Positions 9,040 to 23,065 of a DNA stretch of 25,013 nucleotides are shown piece by piece. How positions within the stretch are numbered: the first letter of the stretch is position 1; each line of letters starts with the position of its first letter. A program made the position numbers and the translations under genes. Source of the stretch: Entrophospora sp. SA101 (Eukaryota; Glomeromycota; Glomeromycetes; Entrophosporales; Entrophosporaceae); contig CAUDNR010004309.1 of assembly GCA_958430865.1 (NCBI GenBank), positions 7,097 through 32,109 of the forward strand. Reading direction: 5' to 3'. Below the pieces are notes generated by a model. It saw only the letters and a program-made list of their open reading frames with translations. It did no database searches and was not told the DNA's origin.

Positions 9040-11863
9040 AAAGTTGCATTTGGAACAAATGAGTAGCATAAATATCTATAATATAAATGTTCATATGAAC
9101 TTTAGGTAGTGGCATAAGTTTGCAAATTAGCCTTAATTGATATGCTCGAGGAATGCCAAAACAAATAAAGCAAGCAAACACTTTTTGTTGCAAATATCTA
9201 AATTGCAGCTTCCATAATTCAATAAATTCAATTGAAATAAAGAAAGCAATAATTATCATTCAACAAAAAAAGGTCATTTCAAACTGAAAACATTTTTTGA
9301 AATGCATAGATATCCTATCTAATCAGTGATAATATTTTTACTTTAAAAATTTATCCATACATTAAATAAATAATATTGATATTTGAAAAAAAAACTACCC
9401 TCTAATTTTGTTTATTTGGTTTATTATGTTTGTTGCATCCCAACTAATTTGTTCATTGTGATTTTGAAAAGTTACACATTTGAGATAATCTATGGCTTGA
9501 TCATGATCCTTTTCGTAACCATGGGCTCCTTCAAAATAGCAAACACCTAAGAAGTGCAAAGCAACCTCATATCCATTTTCAGCTGCCAATTGTAAATATT
9601 TCTTAAATTCTTTAAGGTTTGCTACTTTATCTTTTTCGTAAATGAGGGATGCATAATTATATTGAGCCTTGGCTATACCATTGTCAGCTGCAATTTTATA
9701 CAATTCAATTGCCTTTTCTTTGTCTTCTTGACTGGCTTTGCCTGTTTCTTCACCATGTTGTAAATAGTATGCTTTCCAATAAATTGCATTATAATTATTA
9801 AGTTCAGCATTTTCACAAAAACATTTCCATGCCCTTTGATATTTTCCTCCTTTATAAGCTTTCACTCCTTCATCTAATGGTATGGGAGATTCAAATAAAG
9901 TTTTTTTAACAACTTTAAAATCTGAGTCCTTATCAATGTTATGATGTTGAATTTTGTCATTTGAAACTTCATCTTTAGCAATAAATTTAGCTACATATTT
10001 AGTATTTTCAAAACATTTCCATGATTCTGCCAATTCATTTTTTATTTCATCAAAAGATGGACGATTATGGGGTGAATGTTCCCAGGCTAACAATGAACAA
10101 TAATTATAAATTATTAAAATGTTTATTGATGTAATGATTATTACTTTTGTTATCATTTACCTTTATTAATAATTTGAATTAAAACTTGCTGAATTTCAAC
10201 ATTGTGCACTCCAATTTTTATAGTTTCTCTTTGACCACTTTTGACATGTTCACCAATACTAATTGCATTCATTTCTTTATATGGAATTTGTTGATAAGTA
10301 AGCTCCCAAAGAAACATTCCAAAGCTGAATGAATGGACAAATTAATAATTAGTTAATGAAATTTTATTTAAAATCAAATCATTTCTGTTCATGTTTACCT
10401 AAACATTTCACAATCAAGATTATAAAGTTGAGTTCCTGATTCTATTTTTTCAGGAGCCAACCAAGGAATATAGTCATTTAAATTTGAAATTCTTGAAGTT
10501 TCACCAGATAGATTACGACTAAGTTCAAAATTTGAAACTTTTGCATTTCCATCCTCATCAATCTAAAAAGAGTACATGTTGGTTAATGTGTGCTAATGAT
10601 GTTTTACAAAAAAAAATATAAAACCTACTAATATATTTTCACATTTAACATCATGATGTAAAATTTCACCATTATGCATAAAAAAAAGTCCTCTAATGAC
10701 ATCATATGAAATCTTTAATTTTGTAACCCAGTCAATGTAATGAGTATTGTACAAATCTTTTAAATTGCCCTTTTCAGCCCAGCCAAATATCAAAGCATTA
10801 TGAGAATTTACATTGGAGATACCATAAAATTTAATGATATATTTACATTGAATAGCATTTAGTATTGCAAGTTTTGCTTGAAATTTTTTTGATTCAGAGG
10901 TACCATCATCCTTTGGATAATGTAGAATAGTTTTACATGCCACCTCAACTGTTTTTCTAAGTATTTTTTTAACAACCCTTTTATTTGCACCTCTTACATC
11001 TGTATCCTTTCTGTGACTTAATTTTACATCATCTATATTCCTGGGATCAATTTATGCCAATTTCACTATAGGATTAAGTTCCAAATTGTCAGATGACACA
11101 TATTTAGATAAGTTTTTTATTAAAACTAATTCACTATTCTGCATTGTTGTTTCCAAATTCTAAACAAAATATTTAGATATATATATATATAAATATTCTT
11201 AAATGCATTTATAAAAAAATAAAAAAATTGATATCATTTACTTTATACCTCAAATTTTTCGTATATTTTAGCAAAATATTTCTCCATGTTATTGTCTTGT
11301 TGTTTCATTGTATGATAACTGGAAAGAATCACATTGAATTGTAAATCTGCACAAGCTCCTTCCAAATTTTTAACATGATCATCATAGCACTTTTTAATGT
11401 GGTCAGCATTAAAAAATTTTTTAAATCCTCCATAACTTGAAATATGTTTAATAAAATGTTTAATATTTTTCAAAACAGCTTCAAGCCTATTAAATGCTTT
11501 AAAATAACTTTCTTTACGGAAATTTTCTTCATTTGCTTCTTTTTCTCTTTCCATTTGTTTAATGGCTACATGTGCCAATTCAACTCTATGAATTAATGCT
11601 ATAGAAATTGTCTTATTTTCTTTAATAGTATCATAAAGCCTAATAATTGTTTCACATAAATCACATATTGTTTTAAGTATTGGTACATAATTTGTAAAGG
11701 CATCTCCTGTGGACAGTACAAGCAAGGAAACATTTTTTATTGTGTCCATTGTTGTAATATTATCATCTTTATCATCAATACATCTTTTTTTCGGCTTTCC
11801 ATCATTTATATTAGGTGAAATCTTATCTTTATAATCCATATGTCTTTTTCTATTATTTGGCAT
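9040..11863 (-). repeat. Segmental duplication, copy I (kinase-Sel1 gene plus 3' flank)
   Basis: The block matches 20098-23065 in the same orientation, about 11.2 kb away. Its 3' flank (9040-9394) shares clear but diverged sequence, e.g. gtagcataaatatctata and aaacaaataaagcaagcaa. The centre, about 9845-10899 against 21050-22104, runs at a constant offset of 11205 with no difference that I noticed, introns included. Both ends are more diverged. It stops at the assembly gap at 11870. Confidence 0.85.
9395..11863 (-). CDS. MLKL-like helical domain - pseudokinase - Sel1 repeat protein, copy I (one in-frame stop)
   Basis: Five exons on the minus strand join in frame with GT-AG introns: 11863-11249, 11159-10629, 10562-10399, 10324-10161 and 10086-9395 (721 codons). 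Residues about 40-200 form an amphipathic helical region ('CDLCETIIRLYDTIKENK', 'RVELAHVAIKQMEREKE', 'FNRLEAVLKNIKHFIKHIS') resembling the MLKL N-terminal four-helix bundle. Residues about 245-505 are a TKL-like kinase domain: Lys 281 in VACK is kept. The alpha-C Glu is Lys (FQAK), HRD is HHD (Asp 375), DFG is NFE (393-395), and APE is present. This predicts a pseudokinase. Residues about 564-700 hold Sel1-type repeats ('AIELYKIAADNGIAKAQYN', 'YLQLAAENGYEVALHFLG'), likely protein-binding. A TAA at 11052-11054 interrupts exon 2, so the gene may be dead, or the start of exon 2 may be skipped. Confidence 0.7.
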
Positions 11864-11869
11864 TTGTAG

Positions 11870-11879
11870 NNNNNNNNNN
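11870..11879. other. Assembly gap (10 N)
   Basis: Ten unresolved bases lie 6 bp upstream of the start codon of kinase copy I. The promoter of copy I is therefore not visible, and the join to the sequence that follows is uncertain. The gap size may be nominal. Confidence 0.98.
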
Positions 11880-12190
11880 AATCAACAAATAGCATGGGTT
11901 AAAATTTTGTGTTCCCTCCTGTTAATTTTTGTGTTCCCAGAACGGTCCCACCTGTTCCTGTTTATATACATATATACTTCTGCTATGTTGCGCAGAGCAT
12001 TACTATATATTACTATCATTGAATATTCGAATGTTCGAATATTCATATTAATATTTAATACGTGTAACCGAATATTCATATCGAATATTCGTTAATATAA
12101 AATTTTTTAACAATAAAATAAATTAAATAAAATTGGTAAATTAATTTTTCTAATCAGGATGCTATTTTTATTTTTTTTTGATGTTCTTTA
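11880..12190. other. AT-rich spacer with GAATATTC inverted repeats
   Basis: No gene is supported; both short ORFs here are AT-rich artefacts. The octamer gaatattc occurs four times, at 12021, 12037, 12070 and 12083. The first two form a near-perfect 24-bp palindrome (12021-12044) with 11-bp arms. See findings. Confidence 0.6.
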
Positions 12191-12332
12191 AGGAGTTTTT
12201 CTCCGCAAGACTTGTCATTATTTGCTATGATGATATTACATGGCCATTCTAGATTTCTTTAAATATAGCAGCTCTTAAAAAAAAATTTTTTCTTACAATT
12301 ACTATTCTTAAAAAACTTTTTTTTAGAACACA
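12191..12332 (+). promoter_or_regulatory. Conserved 5' flank of the kinase-Sel1 family (truncated copy)
   Basis: This stretch aligns with the sequence upstream of copy II (complement of 23066-23236). Shared blocks are ggagtttttctccgcaagac (12192) against ggagtttttttccgcaagac; ccattctagatttctttaa against ccattttagattcctttaa; and cttacaattactattctta just before the start. It is the likely promoter and 5' leader, since it is kept between two otherwise separated copies. Function is inferred from position and conservation only. Confidence 0.45.
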
Positions 12333-12719
12333 ATGAATAAAAATTTAGTTCTCAAAATGCCAAATAATAGAAAAAGACATATTGATTATAAAGATAATAT
12401 TTCACCTAATATAAATGATGGAAAGCCGAAAAAAAGATGTATTGATGATAAAGATGATAATATTACAACAATGGACACAATAAAAAATGTTTCCCTGTTT
12501 GCACTGTCCACAGGAGATGCCTTTACAAATTATGTACCAATACTTAAAACAATCTGTGATTTATGTGAAACAATTATAAGACTTTATGATACTATTAAAG
12601 AAAATAAGACAATTTCTATAGCATTAATTCATAGAGTTGAATTGGCACATGTAGCCATTCAAGAGGATTCAAGAAAAGACAACAAATGGGACAGAACAAT
12701 AATGGACCTATACACTTGA
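12333..12719 (+). CDS. Truncated MLKL-like N-terminus fused to foreign sequence (chimeric ORF)
   Basis: Codons from the ATG at 12357 repeat the N-terminus of copy I ('MPNNRKRH', then 'GKPKKRCIDDKDDNITTMD') and the first half of the helical domain up to 'RVELAHVAI'. Homology ends abruptly at 12660. The ORF then runs 19 codons out of frame into the next gene and stops at 12719. An upstream in-frame ATG at 12333 adds MNKNLVLK; copy II lacks it, so 12357 is the ancestral start. The product would be 120-128 aa, with roughly half of the predicted bundle, no kinase and no Sel1 part. The 5' flank is retained, so it may be transcribed. It is either a new chimeric gene or a dead fragment. Confidence 0.5.
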   Translation: MNKNLVLKMPNNRKRHIDYKDNISPNINDGKPKKRCIDDKDDNITTMDTIKNVSLFALSTGDAFTNYVPILKTICDLCETIIRLYDTIKENKTISIALIHRVELAHVAIQEDSRKDNKWDRTIMDLYT

Positions 12720-14589: not shown

Positions 14590-17500
14590 ATGGATGCACT
14601 TTATTTCAAAGTAGACCAACTAAGATCTTTATGGGTTGAGTATCGTGCTGTAAACGAAACTGGTAATGGTAATAACGATTATGGTGATCAGTCAGAATGG
14701 GCCAGAGGAAAATTACAGGTTTTTGCATTTATTTTAAATAAACAATAATGCAACGATGAAAGTTTTTTTTTTATAAATTTATTTATTTTCTCTTTTTATT
14801 AAAAAAAAAAAAGACGATATTAACGGAACTTGATAAACTTATACAAGAACAAGTTTTATGGAAATCAACTTTATCTGCTGAAATAGAGGATTTATTGGTT
14901 TGTACTTGTTTAAACCATTACTCGTTCATCCATTCATTATATATCATTACTATAGATTTATCGATATGTAGATATTAATCTCTATGGCAATTTCTTTATT
15001 TATGATAATAGATAGAAATAGAGGAATATAGTCAATTGTTTGGTCGTAATGTAGACACGATAATATCACAAGCTGCTTTATTGCATGTTGAAATAAATAA
15101 TTTAACGCGTGATAAATTATCAAGTATACGAAATGAGTTAAAAGAGGAAGCTGATTTGACAAGGGAGAATATTAAGAAATGGTTGACAAGTCTTCGAACA
15201 TTTGTTAAAGAGTTAGATTCTGATTATGTCGTTCCGTCTGACGAGGTATGTTTTAAAAGGAAGGTGGACGAGAGAATGTGATAAATAAGAATAAAGAAGG
15301 TGATAATTGACTAATGATTAATGATATTTTTATTTTTTTAGGTGTTTGAGAGTAATTTGGGTACAGCTGTAGTTCGTCCGGTTTGTATATATATTTTATT
15401 TAAATCCTGTTTTTAAACATATATTCATTCATAATTCATTAATATATATATATATACATATATATTATTTTGATTTATAGATATGGTGCAAGTATGATGA
15501 ATATAGCCGTGTTGTGGTAAAGTATTTTTTACAATAATGCATCTTATTAACAATTAATAGATTATTTACCATTCGTCATATCATATCTTATTGTAATTGT
15601 TAGCTTGGTCTTCGAAACGAATTTGAAGAATCATCGATTCAACTTCATTATTATTGGGACACTCTTTGCTACAAACCAAAAGATGAAATAGATAAGGCTT
15701 TATCACAATTATTTGTTGATAAACCAAATCCAAAGGACATTTTTGAAGCGTTACAAGAAACGCTAAAAAATAAGAACAATAATAGTAGCAATGATAATAA
15801 TAGTCTTAGTAGTAATAGTCTTACAAATAGTAATAATAGCGATATTATAAATAATGATGCCGATAAATTAGAACAAGGCCAAGTTATAAATCTGGATCTG
15901 GAATTATGCCATTACATTTATTATACTGCACAGCTCCCGTCCGGGCTAAAATTGACATCGGATCATTTAGAAATTCTAAAAAAGAAAATCCTCGGCTTGG
16001 AAAAAAGTTACACAGAACGTAAACAGAAATTGATGATGTTGAAGAAAACTATACATAACTTCTATGAAGAATTGGATATTCCGAAAGAGAAAAGATTGGA
16101 ATTTAGTGATTCGTTGGACGAAGAGAATATCGATAAATTATCAAAAGAATATGAAAGCCTTCGTGAAATTATGAGACAACGAATTCAAAAGGCTATCGAC
16201 GAGGTTTATTATGAATTATTTGTTTTATTTAATGAGGGTTTATTGTTATTGTTGTTGTTTCTGTTGTTGTTCCTTTTATTAACGATATATTTTATTGATG
16301 ATATATTTATATTGATGTAATAACGAAATGTAGTATACAGTACAATTGGGTGAATTATGGGATAAATGTTTGGTTCCTCAATATGAACGTGATGAATTCT
16401 TTTCAAATTTACATTCATGTAAGTTAAACATATAGTTTTTTTTAGGAAAATCATTTTAGTTTGTTTGTTTGTTTATTTGTTTATAACTGATCAATCACAC
16501 TTACGTTCGCTCAACCTCTCGAAAATTTTAGTGAATTCTGCTGAAGAAGTATACGAATTACTCGCGCAAGAAATTGATCGTCTTCAAGATCTTTATGCTA
16601 AATGTGCCAAGATATATAGATGGATGTTAGAAAGACGTGCTTTAATCGAGGTTAGGATTAATAAATATTATGTCAATTAAACCAAAACCGCAAATACATT
16701 AACGTTAATCGCTAATTAATCAATTGATGTGTTTCTTTACTCTCTTTCCTCTCATTTATCACCCTCGCCTCATTCATCGCCTCCAGAAAATGATTGAATT
16801 TGAGAAAAAGGCTTCTGACCCACGTCGTCTATTCCAAAGTTCATTTCGATTATTGGAAGAAGAAAAATGGAGAAAAACATGTTGGCCCAATTTGGTTAAG
16901 ATTGAAGATCAACTAATCAATGCTTGTGTTGCTTATGAAGAATCTGAACGTAAACCTTTTATGCATGAAAGCAAACGTTACTTGGACACTTTGGTAAATA
17001 AAAGAATATCGGAATTTTTATTTAAAGAAAATTTAGTAATTATGTATTTTTGTTTTTTTTTTTTTTTTTTATTCATTCCATCTTCCCATAATTCAATTTT
17101 ATAGCAATCTGAAATTTCTGAGCGTATTGTAAATCAAATGTTCTTCGGTTTTGAACAATTTGGCTCTAAAAATACAAAAAACGCTAACAATAATGATGAT
17201 GAAAACAGCAATAAATCAAAAAATGCTTCAAAACGTAAAGATAGCCAAAAGGCAATGCCAAGCAGACCATCTTCACCTACCAACGAAAATAAAAGAAATA
17301 GCAGATTATTTGCTAAAGCTCCATCAGCTAGTCGTTCAGTTTCACCTTCAAATGGTAATAGTAATGGAAGATCTCCACAATCACGTAGAAACAGCCAATA
17401 TATCCCTAGTAGATCTGTATCACCCACAGGTCTTAACAATAATGGAACTAAATCAAGAAGAAATAGTCAAGCTATTAGTCAAGCAATTACTCAAGCCATG

Positions 17501-18454
17501 ATGGGTGGCAATAGTAGAGCACCAAGTAGAGCGCCAAGTAGAGCACCAAGTAGAGCACCAAGTAGGACACCAAGTCGGGCACCAAGCAGAGCTGTTTCGC
17601 CTGTACGTTCTAATTCTAACATTTCACGAAACGTATCACCCGTTAGACCTAATCATAGGAGTAATTCAGAAACATCTCCCTCGTCATCAACGAAAAAGCG
17701 TAATAGTTTATTTGTTAAAAATTCCATTGATCCATTATCGCATCTCAACTCGAGTAACAAAGCTTCGTCAAAGTCTCCCAGATCTCCACGATCTTCTTCA
17801 TTCTCTAATAATAATAACAACAACAACAACAACAACAGCAACAACAATATATTGTCATCATCACCATCATCAACTGACCAAAACAATTCACTCTTTTTAG
17901 AAAATAATGGTAATAATAATGATGGTGATGATTCTAATAATACTAAACGTAGTAATAGTATTTCTAGTACATCTAGTGAATCGTCATCATCGATATCTTC
18001 AGTTGCAACTCCAACTATGTTAGAACCATCATCATCTCCTTATATTGTTAATGGTTTATTAAGTGTACCTTCATCATCATCACCATCGCCTCCTAATTCA
18101 TCATCATCACCGTCTGCTACAAAAACAAAATTAAAAATTGAAATAAATGGCAACAATAAAAACAATGGTAATAAAAATAATCCATCTACTAAATCTACAA
18201 AAAGTAGCATTCCTCCTTCTCCATCAATAGTATTATCATCATCAAAAAAGCCTTTGTCTTCTGCTTCCACTACTCCTTCAAATTCTTCATCTTTACCAAC
18301 ACCTATAACTAGGCGTACTAATTCTGCACCGGTTAGGCCAAGACCAAAAAGCATAGTAAATGGCAATGTTTCTAGTTTCTCTAACGAACCATCATCGATG
18401 TTAAAAAGACAAGTTAATAAAAGAATGTCGATGATTGTTGAAAGCAGTAGATAA
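14590..18454 (+). CDS. ASE1: MAP65/PRC1/Ase1 anaphase spindle midzone microtubule bundler
   Basis: Ten exons join in frame: 14590-14718, 14814-14897, 15012-15245, 15342-15380, 15481-15516, 15604-16203, 16334-16418, 16532-16650, 16787-16993 and 17105-18454. All nine introns are GT-AG and 87-136 bp. The product is 960 aa. Residues 1-440 are coiled-coil/rod-like ('DQLRSLWVEYRAVNE', 'EEYSQLFGRNVDTII'). The family signature follows: 'YRWMLERRALIE|KMIEFE' and KKASDPRRLF (449-458), then 'LLEEEKWRKTCWPNLVKIE', the spectrin-like microtubule-binding domain. Family members form dimers that cross-link antiparallel microtubules in the spindle midzone. Residues about 530-960 are disordered, Ser/Asn/Arg-rich, with APSR repeats, a poly-Asn run, and TPSR and SPVR sites matching the CDK consensus. 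This basic tail likely adds microtubule affinity under cell-cycle control. Splicing was inferred by eye. Confidence 0.9.
17516..17592 (+). repeat. 12-bp coding repeat (R-A-P-S) in the Ase1 tail
   Basis: About six and a half copies of agagcaccaagt with minor changes encode R(A/T)PS units at about residues 648-673. One unit reads RTPSR, which creates a CDK-type site. Arg every fourth residue gives a dense positive charge next to the microtubule-binding domain. Confidence 0.85.
17804..17848 (+). repeat. AAT/AAC poly-Asn codon run in Ase1
   Basis: Mixed AAT and AAC codons encode about 14 Asn residues with one Ser near residue 755. Using both codons indicates a tract older than a fresh single-codon slippage event. 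Confidence 0.8.
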
Positions 18455-20530: not shown

Positions 20531-23065
20531 TTAATTTGTTTGGTTTGTTTGGTTTGTTTGGTTTATTTGATTTATTTGATTTGTTTGGTTTGTTTGATTT
20601 GTTTGATTAGATTGATTTATTTGATTTATTATATTTGTTGCATTCTGACTAAATTGTTCATTATGATTTTGAAAAGCTACACATTTAAGATAATCTATGG
20701 CTTGATCATGATCCTTTTCGTAACCATGGGTTCCTTCAAAATAGTAAACACCTAAGAAGTGCAAAGCAACCTCATATCCATTTTCAGCTGCCAATTGTAA
20801 ATATTTCTTAAATTCTTTAAGGTTTGCTACTTTATCTTTTTCGTAAATGAGGGATGCATAATTATATTGAGCCTTGGCTATACCATTGTCAGCTGCAATT
20901 TTATACAATTCAATTGCCTTTTCTTTGTCTTCTTGACTGGCTTTGCCTGTTTCTTCACCATGTTGTAAATAGTATGCTTTCCAATAAATTGCATTATAAT
21001 TATTAAGTTCAGCATTTTCACAAAAACATTTCCATGCCAATTGATATTTTCCTCCTTTATAAGCTTTCACTCCTTCATCTAATGGTATGGGAGATTCAAA
21101 TAAAGTTTTTTTAACAACTTTAAAATCTGAGTCCTTATCAATGTTATGATGTTGAATTTTGTCATTTGAAACTTCATCTTTAGCAATAAATTTAGCTACA
21201 TATTTAGTATTTTCAAAACATTTCCATGATTCTGCCAATTCATTTTTTATTTCATCAAAAGATGGACGATTATGGGGTGAATGTTCCCAGGCTAACAATG
21301 AACAATAATTATAAATTATTAAAATGTTTATTGATGTAATGATTATTACTTTTGTTATCATTTACCTTTATTAATAATTTGAATTAAAACTTGCTGAATT
21401 TCAACATTGTGCACTCCAATTTTTATAGTTTCTCTTTGACCACTTTTGACATGTTCACCAATACTAATTGCATTCATTTCTTTATATGGAATTTGTTGAT
21501 AAGTAAGCTCCCAAAGAAACATTCCAAAGCTGAATGAATGGACAAATTAATAATTAGTTAATGAAATTTTATTTAAAATCAAATCATTTCTGTTCATGTT
21601 TACCTAAACATTTCACAATCAAGATTATAAAGTTGAGTTCCTGATTCTATTTTTTCAGGAGCCAACCAAGGAATATAGTCATTTAAATTTGAAATTCTTG
21701 AAGTTTCACCAGATAGATTACGACTAAGTTCAAAATTTGAAACTTTTGCATTTCCATCCTCATCAATCTAAAAAGAGTACATGTTGGTTAATGTGTGCTA
21801 ATGATGTTTTACAAAAAAAAATATAAAACCTACTAATATATTTTCACATTTAACATCATGATGTAAAATTTCACCATTATGCATAAAAAAAAGTCCTCTA
21901 ATGACATCATATGAAATCTTTAATTTTGTAACCCAGTCAATGTAATGAGTATTGTACAAATCTTTTAAATTGCCCTTTTCAGCCCAGCCAAATATCAAAG
22001 CATTATGAGAATTTACATTGGAGATACCATAAAATTTAATGATATATTTACATTGAATAGCATTTAGTATTGCAAGTTTTGCTTGAAATTTTTTTGATTC
22101 AGAGGTATCATCATCATCCTTTGGATAATTTAAAATAGTTTTACATGCCACCTCAACTGTTTTTCTAAGCATTTTTTTAGCAACCCTCTTATTTGCACCT
22201 CTTACATCTGTATCCTTTCTGTAACTTAATTCTACATCATATATCCTTGGGATCAATTTTTGCCAATTTTATTATAGGATTAAGTTCCAAATTGTCAGAT
22301 AACACACATTGATTTAATTTTTTTATTAAAACTGATCCATTATTCTGCATTGTTGTTTCCAAATTCTAAACAGAATATTTAGATATATATATATAAATAT
22401 TTTTCAATGCATTTATAAAAAAATAAAAACAATTGATATCATTTACTTTATACCTCAAATTTTTCATATATTTTAGCAAAATATTTCTCCATGTTATTGC
22501 CTTGTTGTTTCATTGTATGATAACTGGAAAGAATCACATTGAATTGTAAATCTGCACATGCTCCTTCTAAATGTTTAACATGATCATCATAGCACTTTTT
22601 AATGTGGTCAGCATTAAAAAATTTTTTAAATCCTCCATAACTTGAAATATGTTTAATAAAATGTTTAATATTTTTCAAAACAGCTTCAAGCCTATTAAAT
22701 GCTTTAAAATAACTTTCTTTACGGAAATTTTCTTCATTTGCTTCTTTTTCTCTTTCCATTTGTTTAATGGCTACATGTGCCAATTCAACTCTATGAATTA
22801 ATGCTATAGAAATTGTCTTATTTTCTTTAATAGTATCATAAAGTCTTATAATTGTTTCACATAAATCACAGATTGTTTTAAGTATTGGTACATAATTTGT
22901 AAAGGCATCTCCTGTGGACAGTGCAAACAGGGAAACATTTTTTATTGTGTCCATTGTTGTAATATTATCATCTTTATCATCAATACATCTTTTTTTCGGC
23001 TTTCCATTTGTTATCATGTCTGTCATTTTAGTTGAAGGATCAATATTTCTTTTTTTATTTGACAT
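20531..23065 (-). CDS. MLKL-like helical domain - pseudokinase - Sel1 repeat protein, copy II (2-bp deletion in exon 2)
   Basis: Exons on the minus strand: 23065-22454, 22365-21834, 21767-21604, 21529-21366 and 21291-20531, with the same GT-AG sites as copy I. The helical domain, VACK lysine, FQAK, HHDVKCEN, NFE and APE motifs and Sel1 repeats all match copy I, so kinase activity is again unlikely. Differences: the first 20 residues ('MSNKKRNIDPSTKMTDMIT') are unrelated to those of copy I; an extra Asp lies in exon 2 (DDDDT); and the C-terminus ends in about 27 residues of NQT/NQI repeats where copy I ends NQINKIRG. A 2-bp deletion near 22241-22246 breaks exon 2 where copy I reads 'DPRNIDDVKLS'. 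The copy I stop is absent here (AAA). Expression cannot be judged. Confidence 0.7.
20534..20626 (-). repeat. 9-bp coding repeat giving an Asn/Gln-rich tail
   Basis: On the minus strand, aaccaaaca-type 9-mers (with aatcaaata variants) repeat about nine times, encoding N-Q-T or N-Q-I. The repeat forms the last residues of copy II and is absent from copy I, which has only one NQI unit there. It is therefore an expansion after duplication. Confidence 0.85.

What the first reader, a model, noticed from the sequence alone, without database searches (positions are those of the whole stretch)
9395..11863. MLKL-like helical domain joined to a degenerate kinase and Sel1 repeats
The domain order (helical bundle, kinase fold, protein-binding tail) parallels animal and plant MLKL proteins. 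All three classic catalytic positions are altered: alpha-C Glu to Lys, HRD to HHD, DFG to NFE. Human MLKL is likewise a pseudokinase, with GFE. A fungal pseudokinase that releases a membrane-active bundle would be a necroptosis-like system, possibly tied to non-self recognition between hyphae. The motifs are seen directly; the link to cell death is inference.
Basis: partly seen in the sequence, partly recalled or inferred. Interest (0 to 1): 0.75.

Follow-up and report, generated by a model that had tools for sequence, protein, structure and literature searches.

The report
Broken copies of fungal MLKL-like pseudokinase
This stretch of a mycorrhizal fungus genome holds two near-identical, interrupted copies of a gene whose intact relatives look like the animal and plant cell-death protein MLKL (a membrane-attacking helical bundle joined to a dead kinase); the family has been noted in print for these fungi, and I found no test of its function.

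Summary
The architecture is real. The helical domain is an MLKL-type four-helix bundle: Pfam MLKL_N above cut-off; a bundle profile's only PDB matches better than E 0.01 are MLKL; the predicted fold matches MLKL best. A brace region, a TKL-type kinase fold and Sel1 repeats follow. In this genome 46 of 51 bundle matches have the same pseudokinase exon just downstream, and the arrangement recurs across Glomeromycotina. The altered motifs are a family trait: of 109 aligned kinase rows 7 keep the DFG Asp (six second domains, one outsider); of the other 102, 95 have Asn, while VAIK Lys (90) and HRD Asp (92) are mostly kept. 'All three catalytic positions altered' is overstated.

Both look like pseudogenes or bundle-plus-brace-only genes. 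The source resembles Entrophospora sp. SA101, not Rhizophagus. MLKL homologues with Sel1 in Glomeromycotina are already in print.

A lead outside the window: some relatives join a canonical-type kinase to bundle plus pseudokinase in one chain, like RIPK3 and MLKL combined. A cell-death role is inference.

The parts
11249..11863 (-). Copy A exon 1 (205 aa): N-terminal tail plus MLKL-type four-helix bundle; helices fall in residues 55-173 (about 11701-11345)
   Evidence: Open frame; splice model; Pfam MLKL_N above cut-off; AlphaFold2 model and fold match to MLKL
11055..11159 (-). Copy A exon 2, first part: brace region between bundle and kinase
   Evidence: Splice model; helices predicted at the same place in the intact relative P0005, partly at low confidence
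11052..11054 (-). In-frame TAA stop of copy A, between brace region and pseudokinase
   Evidence: the frame of the copy at G000:C1803:51562 closes at the same place
10629..11051 (-). Copy A exon 2, second part: pseudokinase N-lobe and catalytic loop (VACK Lys codon 10934-10932; Lys at alpha-C position 10874-10872; HHD 10658-10650)
10399..10562 (-). Copy A exon 3: activation segment, NFE at 10532-10524, WLAPE
10161..10324 (-). Copy A exon 4: pseudokinase C-lobe
9395..10086 (-). Copy A exon 5: end of pseudokinase, linker and Sel1 region (about 9877-9455)
20531..23065 (-). Copy B, second near-full copy: exons 23065-22454, 22365-21834, 21767-21604, 21529-21366, 21291-20531; 2-base frameshift near 22242
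   Evidence: the copy at G000:C520 is identical from bundle to catalytic loop and shows the same break
12357..12680 (+). 5' fragment of a third copy (matches residues 1-108 of copy A), no pseudokinase match after it
   Evidence: (G000:C1803:19453-19776); too short to reach a Pfam family at E 0.01
11870..11879 (.). Assembly gap (10 N) directly upstream of the copy A start codon

Best explanation
The window holds interrupted copies of a Glomeromycotina-wide family: N-terminal tail, MLKL-type four-helix bundle, brace, conserved TKL pseudokinase, Sel1 repeats. Shown: homology of each part, conserved order, shared history of bundle and pseudokinase, family-wide loss of the DFG Asp, and the breaks in copies A and B. 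Inferred: in intact members the pseudokinase (with the brace) holds the bundle inactive. Phosphorylation of its activation segment by a partner kinase, or a partner bound by the Sel1 repeats, releases the bundle, which oligomerises and permeabilises the fungal membrane, as in MLKL. Copies A and B can, in this splice model, make at most bundle plus brace, and are most likely recent pseudogenes.
For: Bundle: Pfam MLKL_N; a 19-sequence bundle profile finds seven distinct MLKL sequences as its top seven PDB matches (E 1.3e-4 to 3.8e-3), the next, unrelated, at 0.019; Foldseek ranks 1-7 and VIA ranks 1-7 are MLKL, the latter including Arabidopsis MLKL2. Conserved order: 46 of 51 bundle matches; of 61 near-full-length relatives that I chose out of the 120 listed, MLKL_N in 58, kinase in 61, Sel1 in 59 at E 0.01. 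Bundle and pseudokinase distances co-vary over 71 proteins (Mantel r 0.865; largest of 999 permutations 0.126). Pseudokinase: Asn at the DFG Asp in 95, Glu at alpha-C in 20, of 102 rows. Possible phospho-acceptor: Thr/Ser in 91 of 109 rows eleven residues after the DFG Asp position. Kinase coupling: 23 of 237 retrieved proteins are labelled canonical-type kinase, bundle and pseudokinase in one chain; P0013, P0075, P0129 and P0149 show GxGxxG, Lys, Glu, HRD and DFG together. Constraint: 66 of 71 dN/dS values (17 chosen, partly overlapping paralogue pairs, up to five parts each) are below 1.
Against: No functional data of any kind. The bundle alone finds no PDB sequence by phmmer. Foldseek E for the bundle is 0.015 at best, none at or below 0.001; designed helical proteins come close behind MLKL in Z (10.7 against 12.3-10.8). 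The pseudokinase keeps Lys and HRD Asp, so nucleotide binding or residual activity is not excluded. By sequence its nearest solved kinases are various TKL and Tyr kinases; MLKL is among the 60 shown of 830 but not first. A tail of about 55 residues precedes helix 1, whereas MLKL's residues 0-2 already align there. Some kinase fusions may be merged gene models; the kinase label is rough (in P0157, P0164 and P0180 it also fell on domains with NFK/NFR), DFG is missing or changed in P0039, P0062, P0063 and P0133, HRD is degenerate in several, and P0093 keeps only a remnant. Five of 71 dN/dS values exceed 1, among them L042/L047 in bundle (3.5) and N-lobe (2.7).
Confidence: 0.55

Rival explanations
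1. Scaffold, not killer: the bundle is a regulatory or oligomerisation domain and the pseudokinase plus Sel1 assemble other kinases, as part of the large AMF kinase expansion; no membrane attack.
For: Many AMF kinase-Sel1 proteins exist (47 of 237 retrieved are canonical-type kinase plus Sel1; 2,533 kinase genes are given for R. irregularis in PMC10234402, passages); 6 of 237 put a canonical-type kinase before the pseudokinase without a detected bundle; long tail before helix 1.
Against: The bundle is closest to MLKL executioner domains; animal MLKL and fungal HET-S bundles act on membranes (PMC12881547, passages).
Confidence: 0.3
2. The window copies themselves are pseudogenes with no product; the family may be functional but this locus is a decaying tandem array (not exclusive with the best explanation of the family).
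For: TAA in copy A (same break at C1803:51562) and a frameshift in copy B (same break at C520); truncated fragments nearby; the deposited model P0001, which reads nearly like copy A on both sides, skips the broken stretch together with the end of the bundle and the brace (by eye).
Against: The exon pieces after the breaks are still open. In the bundle core copies A and B differ by 6 synonymous and 2 non-synonymous changes, against 10 and 27 after the break (Fisher p 0.017). This sign is weak: non-synonymous changes also dominate before the break outside the core (5 to 21 in the exon 1 tail, 1 to 10 in the brace part), alignment ends inflate the counts, gene conversion is possible, and the comparison of copy A with C362 shows no such contrast.
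Confidence: 0.6
3. Copies A and B are working bundle-plus-brace genes, a free executioner or a dominant regulator cut loose from its pseudokinase.
For: Two different lesions both fall just after the brace region; bundle core little changed between copies.
Against: Small counts with the weaknesses named above; no transcript data; a constitutive killer should be selected against.
Confidence: 0.12
4. The kinase is still active with an unusual metal site.
For: VAIK Lys in 90, HRD Asp in 92, catalytic-loop Asn in 99 of 102 rows.
Against: Of 109 rows only 7 have the DFG Asp, and these are six second, canonical-type domains of chains that also hold a pseudokinase plus the outsider P0117; the other 102 have Asn 95, Gly 2, Lys 2, Ile 1, gap 2. 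The window and the family consensus show no Gly-rich loop, and alpha-C Glu is found in only 20 of 102.
Confidence: 0.08

Closest known systems
Animal MLKL (human/mouse; RIPK3 substrate)
   Same: Four-helix bundle, brace, TKL pseudokinase with the VAIK Lys kept and DFG lost (motifs of human MLKL recalled); best fold and profile match for the bundle
   Different: Sel1 repeats added; NFx/HHD signature; tail before helix 1; no necrosome known here; function untested
Plant MLKL (Arabidopsis MLKL2/MLKL3)
   Different: No Sel1 repeats; kinase motifs differ (recalled)
TCDB 1.A.105 MLKL homologues of Glomeromycotina (PMC8778642, passages read)
   Same: Reported as MLKL-family homologues found, in that survey of early-diverging fungi, exclusively in Glomeromycotina and carrying Sel1: this is the same family
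   Different: The passages give no catalytic motif, structure, fusion or copy-level analysis; another paper names an MLKL of the early-diverging fungus Basidiobolus (PMC11476962, passages)
Fungal HeLo/HELL/Goodbye bundles (HET-S, HELLP, NLR N-termini)
   Same: Same bundle superfamily; membrane-targeting death effectors (PMC9815663, PMC12881547, passages read)
   Different: Those described in the passages are mostly NLR- or amyloid-controlled; here the bundle is joined to a pseudokinase, an arrangement PMC12881547 mentions for some HELL proteins

Membership tests
MLKL-type proteins (bundle plus pseudokinase) | N-terminal MLKL four-helix bundle | tested here: met
   MLKL_N 29.9 bits, cut-off 27; profile match to MLKL first and alone below E 0.01; fold match
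MLKL-type proteins (bundle plus pseudokinase) | Brace helices between bundle and kinase | tested here: inconclusive
   Two helices at 271-294 and 296-315 in the model of intact relative P0005, partly with pLDDT under 50
MLKL-type proteins (bundle plus pseudokinase) | TKL kinase fold lacking catalytic residues | tested here: met
   Kinase E 5.8e-38; window NFE and, in the family, Asn for the DFG Asp in 95 of the 102 rows left after setting aside 7 of 109 rows with Asp. Lys and HRD Asp are mostly kept
MLKL-type proteins (bundle plus pseudokinase) | One continuous reading frame in the window copies | tested here: not met
   In-frame TAA in copy A, frameshift in copy B; a relative with an open junction, C362/P0003, exists
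MLKL-type proteins (bundle plus pseudokinase) | Phosphorylation-triggered membrane permeabilisation | not testable with these tools
   Only a conserved Thr/Ser (91 of 109 rows) and kinase fusions point to it
Glomeromycotina MLKL-Sel1 family (PMC8778642) | MLKL homology plus Sel1 repeats in an AM fungus | tested here: met
   closest proteins are Entrophospora sp. SA101
HeLo/HELL with amyloid motif | Pfam HeLo/HELL match or amyloid signalling motif | tested here: inconclusive
   No HeLo/HELL family listed by Pfam for the bundle at E 1; amyloid motifs not searched

The most novel reading that the evidence does not exclude
Arbuscular mycorrhizal fungi run a kinase-triggered, MLKL-type lytic death system in which trigger kinase and executioner are sometimes one polypeptide (canonical kinase, bundle, pseudokinase, with or without a second bundle-pseudokinase unit and Sel1). 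The window copies would be derivatives that shed the pseudokinase and make bundle plus brace only.
Probability: 0.25. Interest if true: 0.8.

Novelty: new member of a known kind. Interest (0 to 1): 0.5.

Why it matters
If intact members work like MLKL, necroptosis-type execution (a pseudokinase-gated bundle) would exist in the symbionts of most land plants, at about 50 loci in this one assembly (many in identical pairs), giving a handle on how these coenocytic fungi kill compartments or police non-self. The kinase-bundle-pseudokinase chains would make the kinase-to-executioner step testable within a single protein.

Tried and rejected
Rejected: chance or a one-off decay of the motifs (family-wide conservation); Rhizophagus as source. 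An extra intron that removes the break: the deposited model P0001 uses one, but it takes the end of the bundle and the brace with it, and in the relative P0003 this stretch is coding; I did not test splice variants systematically. The copy A/B constraint contrast is too weak to carry a claim. The single-sequence PDB search with the bundle found nothing; only the profile did. Full-length fold search of P0005 was filled by kinase domains, so it does not test the whole architecture. A search for canonical kinases in this genome scored 142 of 1589 candidates; one match lies within 1 kb of a bundle (C724), a few others about 10 kb away, so absence of neighbours is not shown. Paper searches on MLKL with Rhizophagus or HeLo, MLKL with Glomeromycotina, mycorrhizal pseudokinases with Sel1, MLKL and fungal evolution, mycorrhizal necroptosis, Entrophospora SA101, and RIPK3-MLKL fusion in fungi showed, in the listings and passages that I saw, only PMC8778642 on this family. 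Kwon et al. 2019 on pseudokinase evolution, which I recall as reporting fungal expansions, is not held and may already describe the pseudokinase. The third protein search was not used, and members outside Glomeromycotina were not sought further.

Full report
What is there. On the minus strand at 11863-9395 five exons can be read: exon 1 (205 aa), exon 2, two short exons and a last exon with the Sel1 region. Exon 1 matches Pfam MLKL_N (29.9 bits, cut-off 27); the stretch after the stop matches protein kinase (E 5.8e-38) and Sel1 (E 3.3e-09). Two further points change the picture: the frame carries a TAA at 11054-11052, after the brace region and before the pseudokinase, and a near-identical second copy at 23065-20531 carries a 2-base frameshift within about 20 bases of the homologous place. 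Each break is found at a second locus of the genome (C1803:51562 for the stop, C520 for the shift), so a single read error is unlikely; an assembly duplication is not excluded, since several loci of the family occur as identical pairs. A relative with an open junction (C362; protein P0003) exists. A 5' fragment lies at 12357-12680 (+).

Source. The best matches of the spliced copy A protein (X at the stop) are Entrophospora sp. SA101 proteins, followed by proteins of other Glomeromycotina: Gigaspora, Diversispora, Rhizophagus, Funneliformis, Acaulospora, Ambispora and others (137 matches, 120 listed; nine of rows P0001-P0116 carry no species name, and the four weakest rows are from outside these fungi or unnamed). 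P0001, one of the SA101 proteins, reads nearly like copy A on both sides of the broken stretch, which its gene model skips (by eye). SA101 is a Glomeromycotina entry. I read the source as Entrophospora, not Rhizophagus.

Conserved architecture. In the 101-Mb genome 51 bundle matches were found. Matching them by place with the pseudokinase exon matches, 46 of 51 have one just downstream on the same strand. The exceptions are two fragments (C1803:52463, C1803:19453), two C612 loci and C724, where a single open frame joins a bundle to a different kinase (HCD...DLG). The family search of the genome with MLKL_N gives 37 matches, 33 over the cut-off, and none in 14 control genomes. Of 61 near-full-length relatives that I picked from the 120 listed, MLKL_N is found in 58, kinase in 61, Sel1 in 59. 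Over all 120, 69 read bundle-kinase-Sel1 in that order with the profiles. Bundle and pseudokinase distances correlate over 71 proteins (r 0.865; largest of 999 permutations 0.126), so they have largely travelled as one unit.

Pseudokinase. 109 kinase rows were aligned (154 domain rows came out of the search; those under 181 aa were dropped; the window counted in). Seven rows have Asp at the DFG position: six are second, canonical-type domains of chains that also hold a pseudokinase, one is an outsider (P0117). In the other 102 the DFG Asp is Asn in 95, Gly 2, Lys 2, Ile 1, gap 2; VAIK Lys 90; HRD Arg is His in 90; HRD Asp 92; catalytic-loop Asn 99; alpha-C Glu 20 (one of the 102, P0118, is an outsider). 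In this genome 35 of 36 kinase pieces read lack that Asp, many of them from identical duplicate loci; the one with it is C724. So the signature HHD...NFx is inherited and old, while the Lys and the HRD Asp are mostly kept. Human MLKL, with GFE and its Lys (recalled), is the natural comparison. The nearest solved sequences are TKL and Tyr kinases, with RIPK2, RIPK4 and MLKL among the best 60 shown of 830. A Thr or Ser is found in 91 of 109 rows at one place in the activation segment, a candidate phosphorylation site. Of 71 dN/dS values from 17 chosen paralogue pairs, 66 are below 1 and 5 above, the highest in L042/L047.

Fusions with a kinase. Among 237 proteins collected by two searches (the second used the fused P0013 as query, so this is not a random sample), 23 are labelled canonical-type kinase, bundle and pseudokinase in one chain. 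They are named as Rhizophagus clarus, R. irregularis, Gigaspora margarita, Cetraspora, Diversispora, Funneliformis and Acaulospora. P0013, P0075, P0129 and P0149 have all five active-site motifs; HRD is degenerate in P0032, P0063, P0109, P0084 and P0090; DFG is missing or changed in P0039, P0062, P0063 and P0133; P0093 keeps only a remnant; and in P0157, P0164 and P0180, outside the 23, the label fell on NFK/NFR domains too. Against merged gene models: the linker is conserved between Gigaspora and Cetraspora (about 59% over 90 residues) and between R. clarus P0127 and R. irregularis P0084/P0090 (56% over 32), and has no Met in P0032, P0084, P0090 and P0127. For merging: the P0013 linker resembles the tails of ordinary kinase-Sel1 proteins. 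This arrangement reads like RIPK3 and MLKL in one chain and is the best hint that a kinase switches the module.

Mechanism. Shown: domain homologies, conserved order, family-wide pseudokinase, interrupted window copies. Inferred: autoinhibition by the pseudokinase, release by phosphorylation or Sel1-bound partners, membrane permeabilisation, any role in non-self recognition. The window copies are most likely recent pseudogenes: the exon pieces after the break are still open. A bundle-only product is possible; between copies A and B the bundle core has 6 synonymous and 2 non-synonymous changes against 10 and 27 after the break (p 0.017). That sign is weak: the exon 1 tail (5 and 21) and the brace part (1 and 10) before the break are as loose as the part after it, alignment ends inflate the counts, and gene conversion is possible.

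Known or new. PMC8778642 (passages read) states that MLKL-family homologues were found exclusively in Glomeromycotina and carry Sel1. PMC12881547 (passages) notes HELL domains joined to kinase or pseudokinase domains in fungi. PMC11476962 (passages) takes MLKL homologues in fungi as given and names one of Basidiobolus. So the kind is known. The HHD...NFx signature and the kinase fusions were not seen in the listings or passages that I saw, which is weak evidence of novelty because most subscription papers are not held.

Noticed in passing
proteins P0013, P0032, P0063, P0075, P0109, P0127, P0129, P0133, P0149: Canonical-type kinase (motifs intact in some, degenerate in others) joined to MLKL-like bundle and pseudokinase in one chain, some with two bundle-pseudokinase units in tandem.
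   Followed up: partly
L036 (G000:C724:71303-76929): Single open frame of 432 aa joining an MLKL-like bundle directly to a kinase with HCD and DLG motifs; the only bundle locus read here with Asp at the DFG position.
   Followed up: partly
window, about 20531-20625: Copy B ends in a repetitive Asn/Gln/Thr tail (NQTNQTN...) that copy A lacks.
   Followed up: no
window 15952-17104: Exons of a MAP65/ASE1 microtubule-bundling protein gene on the + strand; a Ser-rich ORF without a Pfam match follows at 17138-18454.
   Followed up: partly
G000 contigs C1492, C1216, C1337, C1573, C270, C1794 and others: Many loci of the family occur as identical or near-identical pairs on one or two contigs, either recent duplication or unresolved haplotypes in the assembly.
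   Followed up: no
window 11870-12357: A 10-N gap and an inverted 5' fragment lie head to head beside copy A, possibly a scaffolding artefact.
   Followed up: no
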